Assembly (NCBI RefSeq): GCF_001693515.2
Contig: NZ_CP042968.1
Coordinates: 248,001 to 312,000 of the forward strand
Length of the DNA: 64,000 nucleotides
From: Bradyrhizobium paxllaeri
GTDB taxonomy: Bacteria; Pseudomonadota; Alphaproteobacteria; Rhizobiales; Xanthobacteraceae
Reading direction: 5' to 3'
Shown here: piece after piece, positions 11,568 to 20,701 of the stretch
How the letters are laid out: each line of letters opens with the position of its first letter
How positions within the stretch are numbered: position 1 is the stretch's first letter
Program-made: the position numbers and the translations under genes
Notes under the pieces: model-generated
Told to the model about the DNA's origin: nothing
The model's database searches: none
Seen by the model: only the letters and a program-made list of their open reading frames with translations

Positions 11568-11650
11568 TGGCGCACCCCTGCACGCTTCGAACGTGTGATC
11601 TTTACCTTCGGGGCAAGTTAGACGGCCATTCGACCAAATTCGATGGGGCA
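11568..11650 (-). pseudogene. Degenerate tRNA-Arg copy (3' half conserved), candidate att scar
   Basis: Read on the minus strand, the 3' half matches the intact tRNA-Arg(CCG) at 20625-20701. My hand alignment of acceptor 3' strand, T arm and anticodon arm gives 38 identities in 44 columns, including GTTCGAA and the terminal GCGCCA. The T loop and four T-stem pairs survive. The anticodon loop has lost two bases (CCGAA instead of CTCCGAA), and the 5' half no longer matches, so a working tRNA is unlikely. Both copies lie in the same orientation. An integrase fragment starts 114 bp away, suggesting a decayed attachment-site duplication. Confidence 0.6.
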
Positions 11651-11763
11651 CGCTATCGCGCGCTATGCCAGTGCAATCGTTAATAAAAACTGAAATGCGT
11701 TCGGCCCTGACGGGTCCTGCGGCATGGCCTGATTTCTTTCCAACTCTTCCGCGACAGAGGATT

Positions 11764-11985
11764 ATGACGCGGGAGAAGCGTCGTGGGTAGCTCACCAAGA
11801 GAATGATTGACGCTGTCGAATTGCGTAAGAAAGATTAAGTCATCCTGGGTGACAAGCTCCCTGGTTTCGGGCTCCGCGTCTCCACATCCGGCAAAAGCAG
11901 CTATCTCATTCGGTACCGGTCTGCTTATCGTTCACGCCGGTACACAATCGGATTGCATTCACTCGTAAAGGGCCTCGCTTCCGAG
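11764..11985 (+). pseudogene. Tyrosine integrase N-terminal fragment (DUF4102-type), decayed
   Basis: From the ATG at 11764 one frame reads MTREKRRG, a TAG stop at 11788, LTKRMIDAVELRKKD, a TAA stop at 11836, then LPGFGLRVSTSGKSSYLIRY and SRRYTIGLHSL. This is the N-terminal arm-binding domain of P4/DUF4102-type phage and island integrases (usual form KxxxYVIWDxELPGFGLRV). The TAA falls where a Tyr codon is expected, one base away. The fragment ends after about 70 codons. The catalytic domain with its R-H-R-Y residues is absent and the next gene starts immediately. It sits beside the degenerate tRNA-Arg copy. Confidence 0.85.
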
Positions 11986-11995
11986 GAGAAGAAAA

Positions 11996-13411
11996 TTGAA
12001 ACATCCCGCTCTGACTCGTTTCCCGGCTCGACTGCTGGGTCTGACCACGCTCGCGCTGATAGCGGCCTCAGCACCCGCGCAAGCGCATGTGAAATGGTTT
12101 GCGCCCTACATCGTCGGTGCACCGCCGCAGCCGATTGCGGCCACGCTCACCAATCTGTGGTTCTGGACCGGCATCGCGCTGGTACTGGTGTTTTTCCTGG
12201 TGACACGAGCGATTGAGAAGTCGAGCGCGGGTGAAACGATCCTGCGCGGCATGGACCGGATCACCGACCCGCTCTGGAAGCGCCTCGATGACTTCGTGCG
12301 CGTGGTCGTCGCCGCCTTCTTCGTAGCGATCTTCGCAGTCGGCGGCGTCTACCTGACACCCGATCTCAAGACACCTGCCGAATGGGTATCATGGGTGCAG
12401 CTTCTCATTGCGGGACTGATTTTTTCTCGCAAGACGCAGCCGCTTGCGGCTCTCGGCATCATCGGCCTGTGGCTGCTGGCACTGCGCGACTACGATGTCT
12501 TTCATCTGCTCGACTACCTCGCGCTCGGCGTCGGCGTCGCCGCCTATCTGGTGCTGGAGGCATCGTCCAATCCGGAATGGCGCAAGCATCGCTTCGAGGC
12601 GCTGCGTTGGGGCGTCGCCATCGCGCTGATGTGGTCGAGCCTCGAAAAGTTCGCCTATCCCGACTGGTTCTATCCGCTCGTGGAGGAAAAACCCTTCCTG
12701 ACTTTCGGCATGCCGCGCGACGTCTTCATTCCAATGGCCGGCGTCGCCGAGTTCACGATGGGATTCGGCCTGATCTGGACGCCGCTGGTCCGCCGGCTGT
12801 CGGCCATCGCTCTCTTCGTCATCTTCAACGCAGCCGTCTATCCGTTCGGCCGCACCGACCTGATCGGCCACGCGCTCATCATGGCGATCATCGTCGCCAT
12901 TGCGGCCGATCATACAAGGGAGGTGCATTTCCTGCCTGCCGTCAAGCGCAGGCTGGTCGGCGTCCCGGCAGGACTTGCGGCAGCGCTCGTCATTTTCGTA
13001 GCGGGATATTGGGGACTGCACATCGCGATTTACGGCATCGAAGGAAATACCGGGGCGTCGGCCGGCGAGCGACTGACGCACACGCCGAACCCCGAGCATC
13101 CGCACAGCATGCACGGCGCCACCGCGACGGCGGCATTATCAGCGGCGACGGCCGAGGCGGCCTATCGCACCGCCATGGACCGCATGCATGGCCCCATGAT
13201 GCAAGGCATCGCCAATGTCGATCCCGACCAGGCCTTTGTGCTCGGCATGATCCCTCACCATCAAGGCGCGATCGACATGGCCGAGATCGTCCTGAAATTC
13301 GGCAAGGATGCTCGAAACCAGCACCTTGCTCGCGAGATCATCGATGCCCAGAGGCGAGAGATCGGCGAGATGCGCGAATGGCTCAAGCAGAAAGACATCC
13401 CGCAACCCTAG
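11996..13411 (+). CDS. Polytopic membrane protein fused to a C-terminal DUF305 domain
   Basis: 471 residues. A signal-like segment (LLGLTTLALIAASAPAQAH) is followed by HVKWFAPYIV and about eight further TM helices up to residue 350, resembling DoxX-like membrane proteins. After a His-rich linker (HTPNPEHPHSMHGATA), residues 385-470 form a DUF305 domain with MHGPMMQG, FVLGMIPHHQGAIDMAE and the closing MREWLKQK. DUF305 proteins are ferritin-like helical proteins often linked to copper or other metals. The start is TTG with GAGGAGAAG upstream, and that ribosome site lies in integrase-derived DNA. The fusion is unusual. A link to the copper chaperone gene upstream is plausible but unproven. Confidence 0.85.
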   Translation: MKHPALTRFPARLLGLTTLALIAASAPAQAHVKWFAPYIVGAPPQPIAATLTNLWFWTGIALVLVFFLVTRAIEKSSAGETILRGMDRITDPLWKRLDDFVRVVVAAFFVAIFAVGGVYLTPDLKTPAEWVSWVQLLIAGLIFSRKTQPLAALGIIGLWLLALRDYDVFHLLDYLALGVGVAAYLVLEASSNPEWRKHRFEALRWGVAIALMWSSLEKFAYPDWFYPLVEEKPFLTFGMPRDVFIPMAGVAEFTMGFGLIWTPLVRRLSAIALFVIFNAAVYPFGRTDLIGHALIMAIIVAIAADHTREVHFLPAVKRRLVGVPAGLAAALVIFVAGYWGLHIAIYGIEGNTGASAGERLTHTPNPEHPHSMHGATATAALSAATAEAAYRTAMDRMHGPMMQGIANVDPDQAFVLGMIPHHQGAIDMAEIVLKFGKDARNQHLAREIIDAQRREIGEMREWLKQKDIPQP

Positions 13412-13809
13412 AGGACGGCGACGAACACGAAGCGACCGTCCAAGGCGACCGGATGCGCCTTCAATATAACCGGCCCGTCCAATCCGGACGCTGGCGGCTG
13501 GGATTATGGATCCATCAAATCAAAGCTGTTGGCGTCATACACAATTGAAATTGCTTGTGATTTTTCCGTCCCATAGTCCGGCGGCCGTCGGCGCCGACTT
13601 CGGCCTCACGCTCACCCGTAGGGAATTTCACCACGCCTCACGACAGCGTGCGCCTTTCGCTCGGCGATCGTAGTATTGTCGGCGGCAGCCGGCGACAGCT
13701 CGAGACTGAGGATTCGCGTACGCACTCGATCGTGGCGTTCGAAGAGATGTACTACAGGATCAGCTGATGATCGCGGCGGCGGTCGGACGGCGCGGCAATG
13801 GAGGTCATC
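13412..13809. other. Intergenic region upstream of NAD-glutamate dehydrogenase
   Basis: Nearly 400 bp without a convincing gene. A locally AT-rich stretch (CATACACAATTGAAATTGCTTGTGATTTTT, about 13538-13567) stands out from the GC-rich surroundings and may hold the promoter. The last 12 bp include the ribosome site of the following gene. Confidence 0.55.
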
Positions 13810-19480: not shown

Positions 19481-19618
19481 GGTTTGCCGGCCAGATACAG
19501 GCCGGGGAACCCGTGCCTCGCCGTTCGCGCTACGCAGAACGGCATGGGCATGGGTCGTCGGAAGGCGTATGATTGTGCGGTCCTTCGCGCCATTGATCAA
19601 CGTCACGTGGAGGTGGCC

Positions 19619-19903
19619 ATGAAATATGTGCTGCTTGGTAATCTGAGCCCGGAGTGGGCAAGCAAGCAATCGGAGCGGATCGGCAAGGCCAAGGCAAAAC
19701 TCGACAAGCTGGGCATCAAGGTCGAGTCGATTCATTACACGCAGGGCTACTACGATTTCGTCGACATCGTCGATGCCCCGAATGAGGGCGCGATGCTCGC
19801 GTTCTCTGTCTGGTACGCGACCCAGGGTCTCGGGCGGATTCAGAGTATGCCGGCCTTCGACGCAAAGACCTTCGAAACCGCAATCAAGGACGCGGCGGGC
19901 TAA
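19619..19903 (+). CDS. GYD domain protein
   Basis: 94 residues of the GYD family (small ferredoxin-like fold), beginning MKYVLLGNLSPEWASKQSER, with the family-naming region HYTQGYYDFVDIVDAPNE and ending FDAKTFETAIKDA. The function is unknown; members are often near metabolic genes in Rhizobiales. The ATG at 19619 has GGAGG five bases upstream. The frame could extend to 19484 but the extra sequence looks non-coding. Confidence 0.88.
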   Translation: MKYVLLGNLSPEWASKQSERIGKAKAKLDKLGIKVESIHYTQGYYDFVDIVDAPNEGAMLAFSVWYATQGLGRIQSMPAFDAKTFETAIKDAAG

Positions 19904-19912
19904 GCGTCGGGG

Positions 19913-20446
19913 TTAACTAGCAGGAACGTAGGTCAACCTGATCACGTCCTCGCCAATCCGATCATTGGCCATAAGGCGGAGCGGCGGCCGGGGTCCGGCG
20001 AAATATGGCTTGCCGTGACCAAGCACGACGGGGTGCAGGTAGATTCGATACTCATCGATCAGGCCAAGTTCAGTGAGGCTTCGCGCCAGGTCCGGGCCAG
20101 CAACTTCGATCTCCCCGTCGTGCTCCGCCTTTAGCTCGCGGATCGCGCCTTCAAGATCATTCTCGACAAGCCTGGCGTTGGGGCCGACCGACTTCAGCGA
20201 GCGCGAGACGACCCTTTTCGGCTGGCTCCGCCACGCCACCGCAAAGGCGCGTTCCTCCGCACCCCATTCAGGATGATCGTCGTCCCAGTAACGCATGATC
20301 TCATACATTTGGCGACGGTACACACTGCCCGCCTGCCTCTGAGCCTCCTCGATGAAGTGGCGGAAGAGCGTGGGGCTTGGCGCAAACGCCATATGATCGA
20401 CATAGCCGTTCAGGGACTGGTTCATTCCGAACACGAGCTTAGCCAT
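19913..20446 (-). CDS. Dihydrofolate reductase-family protein (RibD C-terminal type)
   Basis: 177 residues. The opening MAKLVFGMNQSLNGYVD and the later VAGPDLARSLTELGLIDEY followed by YLHPVVLGHGKPYF are hallmarks of the RibD-C/YwjB-like DHFR superfamily. Such proteins use NADPH, but most do not reduce dihydrofolate and their substrates are unknown. It is convergent with the GYD gene (stop codons 10 bp apart). It is the last gene before the intact tRNA-Arg. Confidence 0.9.
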   Translation of the reverse strand: MAKLVFGMNQSLNGYVDHMAFAPSPTLFRHFIEEAQRQAGSVYRRQMYEIMRYWDDDHPEWGAEERAFAVAWRSQPKRVVSRSLKSVGPNARLVENDLEGAIRELKAEHDGEIEVAGPDLARSLTELGLIDEYRIYLHPVVLGHGKPYFAGPRPPLRLMANDRIGEDVIRLTYVPAS

Positions 20447-20624
20447 GCTGCAAAAATCTCCATCCAGCTTCTTCAGAATAGCTTGAGCCGACGGGTAGGC
20501 GGAAGTGAGGGCCGAGGGGGCAGTTCACCAATGCGAGCGCCGCGCGCTATCGAACACCGCGCCCTCTACGAGGACGGCTTCTTCCCACATAGCCTATCAT
20601 AGCAGGCCGTAGTCTCGGTGGAAT

Positions 20625-20701
20625 TGGCGCACCCGACACGATTCGAACGTGTGACCTTTGCCTTCGGAGGGCAACGCTCTATCCAGCTGAGCTACGGGTG
20701 C
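20625..20701 (-). tRNA. tRNA-Arg (anticodon CCG)
   Basis: On the minus strand a 77-nt cloverleaf folds by hand: acceptor GCACCCG/CGGGTGC, D arm GCTC-GAGC, anticodon stem TTGCC/GGCAA with loop CTCCGAA (anticodon CCG, reading CGG), T arm ACACG-TTCGAAT-CGTGT, discriminator G and an encoded CCA. It is intact. A degenerate same-orientation copy of its 3' half lies at 11568-11650. Confidence 0.96.

What the first reader, a model, noticed from the sequence alone, without database searches (positions are those of the whole stretch)
11568..20701. Possible decayed genomic island between two tRNA-Arg copies
Seen: the 3' half of an intact tRNA-Arg(CCG) at 20625-20701 is repeated in degenerate form, same orientation, at 11568-11650 (38 identities in 44 columns by hand). 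An integrase N-terminal fragment with two in-frame stops starts at 11764. Known: islands with tyrosine integrases insert into tRNA 3' ends and leave a direct repeat. Inference: the 9.1-kb stretch between, carrying the DUF305 fusion, NAD-glutamate dehydrogenase, ICMT, GYD and DHFR-family genes, may be the residue of an island. Against it: the integrase fragment is at the distal end rather than next to the tRNA gene, and the cargo looks metabolic.
Basis: partly seen in the sequence, partly recalled or inferred. Interest (0 to 1): 0.7.

Follow-up and report, generated by a model that had tools for sequence, protein, structure and literature searches.

The report
Layered gene insertions behind a tRNA-Arg
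The 9-kb stretch is a pile of old mobile-DNA insertions at the end of a tRNA gene, not one island, and it points to a family of small gene cassettes, including one for a large metabolic enzyme, that stack up behind tRNA genes in Bradyrhizobium and may move with a cassette-chromosome-like recombinase.

Summary
A degenerate 3' half of tRNA-Arg(CCG) lies at 11568 beside a broken tyrosine-integrase start; relative G023 has the same att+integrase with an exact 45-bp repeat. The boundary looks real: in G000, G248 and (by eye) G019 the conserved left flank stops at the same point before a TGG..CC core, with three different inserts. Flank-to-tRNA spacing ranges from about 1.2 to 69 kb; no fully empty site was found.

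It is not one island. An int'-DUF305 remnant is shared by four species in different gene orders. NAD-glutamate dehydrogenase (gdh) is xenologous: rpoB 97.4% but gdh 85.8% identical to near relative G148.

Beyond the window, gdh sits mostly convergent to 3' ends of different tRNA genes (68 of 108 loci, 11 same-strand). It is one of several cassettes delimited by a 9-bp TGGCG[CT][GA]CC core, sometimes in tandem. One recurrent cassette end also lies upstream of four CcrB-like large serine recombinase genes that run into the tRNA. That this recombinase moves the cassettes is inferred; the window itself has neither.

The parts
8549..11567 (.). conserved left chromosomal flank (includes PCuAC chaperone gene 10044-10562); its last bases adjoin a TGG..CC core in G000, G248 and, by eye, G019
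11568..11616 (-). degenerate copy of the tRNA-Arg(CCG) 3' half: distal attachment-site scar
   Evidence: 44 of 52 columns identical; homologous to the exact 45-bp att of G023
11764..11951 (+). N-terminal fragment of a tyrosine integrase, two in-frame stops
   Evidence: 61% over 74 aa with intact G023/G007 integrases; Pfam of the G023 protein
11957..13440 (+). module with the MauE-like/DUF305 (CopM-domain) fusion gene, ORF 11996-13411; integrase remnants precede it in G000, G001, G024 and G148
13536..19005 (+). xenologous cassette: NAD-glutamate dehydrogenase 13798-18624 plus 106-aa ORF 18681-19001
   Evidence: Pfam; module limits; gdh/rpoB discordance
19008..19911 (+). ICMT/PEMT methyltransferase (19010-19480) and GYD-domain gene (19484-19903)
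   Evidence: the pair or parts of it at other positions in relatives
19913..20446 (-). RibD C-terminal domain (dihydrofolate-reductase-like) gene; a relative lies upstream of gdh near tRNA-Arg(ACG) in G062 and G063, and in the G134 array
   Evidence: G134 by eye
20625..20701 (-). intact tRNA-Arg(CCG), the integration target
20702..23104 (.). conserved right flank (universal stress protein, YccF, luciferase-like monooxygenase)

Best explanation
The interval 11568-20624 is a layered, decayed accretion zone at the 3' end of tRNA-Arg(CCG). Successive elements recombined into the tRNA 3' end, each pushing older ones away, and then decayed. At least two independent layers are visible: the end of a tyrosine-integrase element (att scar, integrase fragment, DUF305/CopM gene), and a horizontally acquired NAD-glutamate dehydrogenase + ORF106 cassette; ICMT-GYD and the RibD gene behave as further movable pieces. 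Shown: boundaries, composition, discordant histories, different orders in relatives. Inferred: in related genomes the gdh cassette and other short cassettes integrate by a short core (TGGCG[CT][GA]CC, the tRNA-Arg 3' terminus), perhaps through a CcrB-like large serine recombinase carried by some of the elements; this window keeps the gdh cassette but has lost its ends.
For: att copy + integrase match an element end with exact 45-bp repeat in G023. Left flank ends at the same point before a core in G000, G248 and, by eye, G019, with three different inserts; in G019 the insert is the gdh cassette itself. Orders differ: G000 and G001 flank-int'-DUF305-gdh-ICMT; G024 flank-gdh-ICMT remnant-int'-DUF305; G148 flank-ICMT-GYD-int'-DUF305 without gdh. 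gdh is in 67 of 146 genus genomes, one of them (G077) by short fragments only. gdh rejects the 25-row rpoB clade (p-AU 5.6e-66) and {G000,G001,G024,G148} (8.6e-40). Downstream convergent tRNA or tRNA 3' fragment at 68 of 108 distinct gdh loci, same-strand at 11 of 108. Core + left arm before gdh in 42 of 95 loci against 6 of 1380 control windows.
Against: No element with intact ends remains in the window: no type A or B end and no match to the serine recombinase; that part rests on relatives. No completely empty site among the orthologous loci. 40 of 108 gdh loci show no convergent tRNA signal in the held flank and 65 of 108 none within 2 kb; 53 of 95 lack a recognizable left arm. 5 of 104 gdh loci have serine-recombinase remnants within 1 kb upstream. 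G001, the closest relative, lacks a recognizable att copy. The G019 core was not picked up by the motif search. Excision or integration was not observed.
Confidence: 0.8

Rival explanations
1. One island: a single element with integrase at its far end brought DUF305, gdh, ICMT, GYD and RibD together into tRNA-Arg(CCG) and then decayed in place.
For: Direct repeat, integrase and boundary are all there; in G000 and G001 the segment 11957-19005 is contiguous (94.4%).
Against: G024 and G148 have the pieces in other orders or without gdh. G019 has gdh at the flank, and G073 and G156 have it next to the tRNA, with no att-int-DUF305 in between.
Confidence: 0.1
2. gdh and its neighbours are ordinary chromosomal genes reshuffled by homologous recombination or inversion; nearness to tRNA 3' ends only reflects that these are tolerated breakpoints.
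For: 65 of 108 gdh loci lack a tRNA signal within 2 kb, and module limits lie close to gene ends, that is in intergenic DNA.
Against: Strand bias towards tRNA 3' ends (68 loci against 11); junction sequence shared between gdh loci at different tRNA types up to the tRNA terminus (mean alignment score 12.4 over 124 pairs against 5.2 for tRNA-Arg(CCG) without gdh); short core on the other side too.
Confidence: 0.1
3. The recurrent cassette ends are an ordinary miniature repeat (MITE or REP-like) that happens to contain TGGCGCGCC and gathers at tRNA genes; the serine recombinase is unrelated.
For: Type B forms a DNA hairpin (z -3.2); 23 of 30 type B loci have no intact tRNA in the held 3 kb; two arrays (G171, G201) hold one type B copy pointing the other way.
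Against: Copy number is low (0-9 per genome among 391, up to 3 mismatches); a type B end lies upstream of each of four intact serine-recombinase genes; the 7 intact tRNAs seen near type B ends are all downstream and convergent; complete genes sit between successive ends.
Confidence: 0.15

Closest known systems
Dehalococcoides ssrA genomic islands (DsiB serine recombinase), PMC3146451
   Same: Tandem islands stacked downstream of an RNA gene, delimited by direct repeats of its 3' end, with a 540-residue CcrB-like serine recombinase whose gene holds the att; islands without recombinase interpreted as possibly cis-mobilizable (passages seen)
   Different: Target there is the single-copy tmRNA gene and the repeat is 20 bp; here several tRNA-Arg isoacceptors (and with gdh also Glu, Leu, Met, Gln), a 9-bp core and cassettes often of 1-3 genes; the other genes of the Dehalococcoides integration module were not looked for
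CIME / tandem accretion model (review PMC5704250, which cites Pavlovic 2004 and Bellanger 2011)
   Same: Decayed elements that keep att sites and stack at a gene end, later mobilized together (passages seen)
   Different: The tRNA-Lys example in the passages uses tyrosine integrases; here two unrelated recombinase types occur at the same tRNA gene
SCC elements with Ccr recombinases
   Same: Recombinase L011:16768-18411 matches the NCBIfam CcrB model best (142 bits, E 2e-41)
   Different: Far below the CcrB cut-off of 900 bits; different target gene
Bradyrhizobium symbiosis ICEs at tRNA genes including tRNA-Arg and tRNA-Glu (PMC9174649, PMC11837538)
   Same: Same genus and overlapping target tRNAs; [quoted passage not shown]
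   Different: 0.49-1.2 Mb islands there; here short cassettes

Membership tests
tRNA-targeting integrative (mobilizable) element with tyrosine integrase, for the 11568-13440 remnant | direct repeat of the tRNA 3' end at the far edge | tested here: met
tRNA-targeting integrative (mobilizable) element with tyrosine integrase, for the 11568-13440 remnant | site-specific integrase gene | tested here: met
   N-terminal fragment only, broken
tRNA-targeting integrative (mobilizable) element with tyrosine integrase, for the 11568-13440 remnant | relaxase or transfer genes | tested here: inconclusive
   none among the 17 window ORFs scanned with Pfam; MobA_MobL relaxase beside the homologous integrase of G023
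single genomic island 11568-20624 | contents behave as one unit in relatives | tested here: not met
accretion array / CIME | elements without recombinase but with retained att-like ends, in tandem at one target | tested here: met
   in relatives, not in the window itself:
accretion array / CIME | mobilization in cis by a resident element | not testable with these tools
   needs circle or junction PCR
Ccr-type (large serine) recombinase | resolvase catalytic domain, recombinase domain, zinc ribbon | tested here: met
   protein L011:16768-18411 of G024
Ccr-type (large serine) recombinase | NCBIfam CcrB equivalog cut-off | tested here: not met
   142 bits against 900

The most novel reading that the evidence does not exclude
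tRNA-Arg genes of Bradyrhizobium and relatives are anchors of an integron-like cassette system run by a CcrB-like large serine recombinase: one-to-three-gene cassettes with a 9-bp core equal to the tRNA 3' terminus are captured, stacked mostly in one orientation and moved between isoacceptor tRNA genes and species, even carrying a metabolic enzyme such as the 1608-aa NAD-glutamate dehydrogenase; the window holds a decayed example.
Probability: 0.4. Interest if true: 0.8.

Novelty: new variant of a known kind. Interest (0 to 1): 0.6.

Why it matters
It would explain how single metabolic genes become accessory and patchy in a large soil genus without a plasmid or classic island around them, and it gives a testable counterpart to integrons that uses a serine recombinase and a tRNA gene as the docking site. 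It also warns that direct repeats of a tRNA end need not bound one island.

Tried and rejected
Compositional evidence: no GC contrast between block and flanks. Empty-site search in 265 genus genomes: none without insert among the loci I mapped. A residual att-int match in the 123 bp between flank and ICMT of G148 and in the 81 bp between flank and gdh of G019 was not better than shuffles. The G019 core (TGGTGGGCC) was read by eye and met only the relaxed arm search (7 substitutions in 35); the flank-end motif search (up to 5 edits) found G248 and G023, plus one match in G239 that does not look related, and missed G019. The first rpoB tree was wrong because minus-strand loci were not turned; it was redone and only that one is used. 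In the tRNA-fragment scan, Pro(tgg) hits beside Arg(ccg) and Phe(gaa) in G131 look like cross-matches: Pro was dropped and G131 relabelled Leu(caa) before counting changes on the trees, not before the counts. The window's own gdh left junction (TTGGCGT before CATACAC) may be a core with its arm deleted; too short to claim. A literature search for NAD-specific glutamate dehydrogenase with Bradyrhizobium and horizontal gave nothing. Passages of four papers were seen; other titles were seen in listings only.
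Full report
Observation. The window has one tRNA, tRNA-Arg(CCG) at 20625-20701 on the minus strand. Its 3' half recurs at 11568-11616, same orientation, 44 identities in 52 columns, E 2.2e-6 in the whole genome, and none of 20 shuffles came near its score. A tyrosine-integrase start with two in-frame stops begins at 11764. Intact 452-aa integrases in G023 and G007 match it at 61% over 74 residues; the G023 protein carries Arm-DNA-bind_3 and Phage_integrase domains. 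In G023 one alignment runs through att and integrase, and the att there is an exact 45-bp copy of the tRNA end. Near that integrase lies a MobA_MobL relaxase gene. So the distal position of the integrase is also seen in a relative whose integrase is intact.

Boundary. In 28 genus genomes the orthologous left flank (8549-11381) was seen on the same contig as the right flank or tRNA in normal orientation (my count from the listings; three more have the flanks on different contigs and one, G253, inverted and far apart), at spacings from about 1.2 kb (G248) to about 69 kb (G204). In G000 the flank runs to 11567 and then the att copy starts. In G248 the homologous flank runs to the same point and is followed by TGGCGCGCCC and a 1.17-kb insert with one 324-aa ORF. 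In G019, read by eye, the flank is followed by TGGTGGGCC and the gdh cassette. In G023 the last flank bases lie before the exact att, but 5.7 kb of other DNA separate them from the rest of the flank. I saw no genome with the flank joined straight to the tRNA.

Not one island. G001 keeps flank-int'-DUF305-gdh, then 1.4 kb, ICMT, 2.5 kb, tRNA. G024 has flank-gdh-ICMT remnant-int'-DUF305-7.8 kb-tRNA. G148 has flank-ICMT-GYD-int'-DUF305-2 kb-tRNA, with its gdh 1.1 Mb away. Integrase remnants precede DUF305 in all four genomes, but G000 keeps the first codons and the other three keep later ones: one old insertion, decayed separately. The order swap between G024 and G000/G001 would follow if the gdh-ICMT segment had left and re-entered at the tRNA; that is inference.

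gdh is foreign here. gdh was found in 67 of 146 genus genomes, one of them (G077) only by short fragments, and once in G000. With 60 genomes given to both trees (of those with gdh), G000 is 97.4% identical to G148 in rpoB and 85.8% in gdh, but 92.2% and 92.0% to G095. The gdh data reject the 25-row rpoB clade (p-AU 5.6e-66) and the four-species clade (8.6e-40); the groups were taken from the rpoB tree.

gdh and tRNA ends. Of 149 gdh loci, 108 were distinct and full length. 68 of 108 have a tRNA or tRNA 3' fragment downstream and convergent in the held flank (0.1-15 kb), 11 of 108 on the same strand; 40 have no convergent one. Within 2 kb: Arg(acg) 24, Arg(ccg) 5, Leu(caa) 5, Glu(ctc) 5, Met(cat) 2, Gln(ttg) 1, Phe(gaa) 1 (G131, in my reading a decayed Leu), none 65. 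Three Labrys and seven Microvirga loci are among the 108 and show no convergent signal. In 5 of 108 a convergent fragment also lies upstream of gdh, in 4 of them of the same tRNA type, Arg(acg), as downstream. The loci are related, so these counts are not independent; the least number of tRNA-type changes on the gdh tree is 17 for 46 labelled tips (200 label shuffles: least 20, mean 24), or 9 for the 22 tips labelled within 1 kb. Junction sequences of gdh loci at different tRNAs resemble each other up to the tRNA terminus.

Cassette ends. Upstream, the gdh homology begins at about window 13535 in many relatives and is preceded by TGGCG[CT][GA]CC-ATTCAGAACAAAACCACGAAC (type A), in 42 of 95 loci against 6 of 1380 control windows (up to 9 substitutions in 35). 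A second recurrent end, type B (TGGCGCGCC-ACGGCCGATGAAGATGGGCAC..., a DNA hairpin), occurs in 63 of 391 family genomes and 12 of 47 genera; the reversed-pattern control is 0 in the rows listed. It comes in tandem, up to four copies in 3.7 kb in G171. In the 20 loci that I picked, mostly for tandem copies, 10 have an intact tRNA-Arg(acg), (ccg) or (tcg) downstream and convergent; two of them (G171, G201) also hold one copy pointing the other way. Of 30 type B loci taken by the tool, 7 had an intact tRNA in the held 3 kb, all 7 downstream and convergent, 6 of them tRNA-Arg; 23 had none. Complete genes lie between the ends: EamA transporter, methyltransferases, outer-membrane barrel, MFS transporter, HigB-type toxin with an HTH partner, SUKH-3, type III pantothenate kinase (9 cassette proteins were scanned of a longer list whose output was cut). 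A relative of the window's RibD gene lies in the G134 array (by eye).

Recombinase. At the tRNA end of G024, G019, G239 and G025 lies a ~548-aa large serine recombinase gene whose frame runs into the tRNA 3' end; C-terminal remnants abut tRNA-Arg ends or cores in further loci. The G024 protein has Resolvase, Recombinase and Zn_ribbon_recom domains, its best NCBIfam model is CcrB, far below the cut-off, and its PDB relatives are serine integrases and resolvases. A type B end, in G025 with small gaps, lies roughly 2-3.4 kb upstream of each of these four genes (my arithmetic); that it is the left end of the recombinase's own element is inference. Hence the reading that type B cassettes are its dependants; for type A, including gdh, the link is weaker (5 of 104 gdh loci with recombinase remnants within 1 kb upstream). 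The window has neither end type nor this gene; elsewhere in its genome one type B cassette with a SUKH-3 gene sits at tRNA-Arg(tcg).

Known systems. The Dehalococcoides ssrA islands are the nearest match in layout and recombinase; the accretion/CIME model covers the stacking; Bradyrhizobium symbiosis islands already use tRNA-Arg and tRNA-Glu. I found no description of the short-core cassettes or of gdh moving among tRNA ends in the searches listed, which cover open-licence papers only. I therefore rate it a new variant of a known kind.

Noticed in passing
L016 (G010:C1:917000-936000), positions 4657 and 14211: Two exact 45-bp copies of the tRNA-Arg(CCG) 3' end, one followed by an integrase ORF, about 0.63 Mb from the tRNA itself; possibly a large tRNA-Arg symbiosis-type island.
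   Followed up: partly
G000:C1:2912741-2916732 (outside the window): 20 tRNA-family matches within 4 kb on one strand, several low scoring: looks like a tRNA array.
   Followed up: no
L327 (G000:C1:3090000-3102000), 5443-6112: A type B cassette with a SUKH-3 immunity-like gene at tRNA-Arg(tcg) in the window's own genome.
   Followed up: partly
L011:16768-18411: The serine recombinase frame reads antisense into the tRNA-Arg gene, so its last residues are encoded by the tRNA 3' end.
   Followed up: partly
L324:6655-7428 (G134:C1:719000-733000): A type III pantothenate kinase family gene lies in a cassette near tRNA-Arg(acg); whether it is the genome's only copy was not checked.
   Followed up: no
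L018:6865-8052 (G148): An IS481-type transposase lies between DUF305 and the tRNA in this near relative.
   Followed up: no
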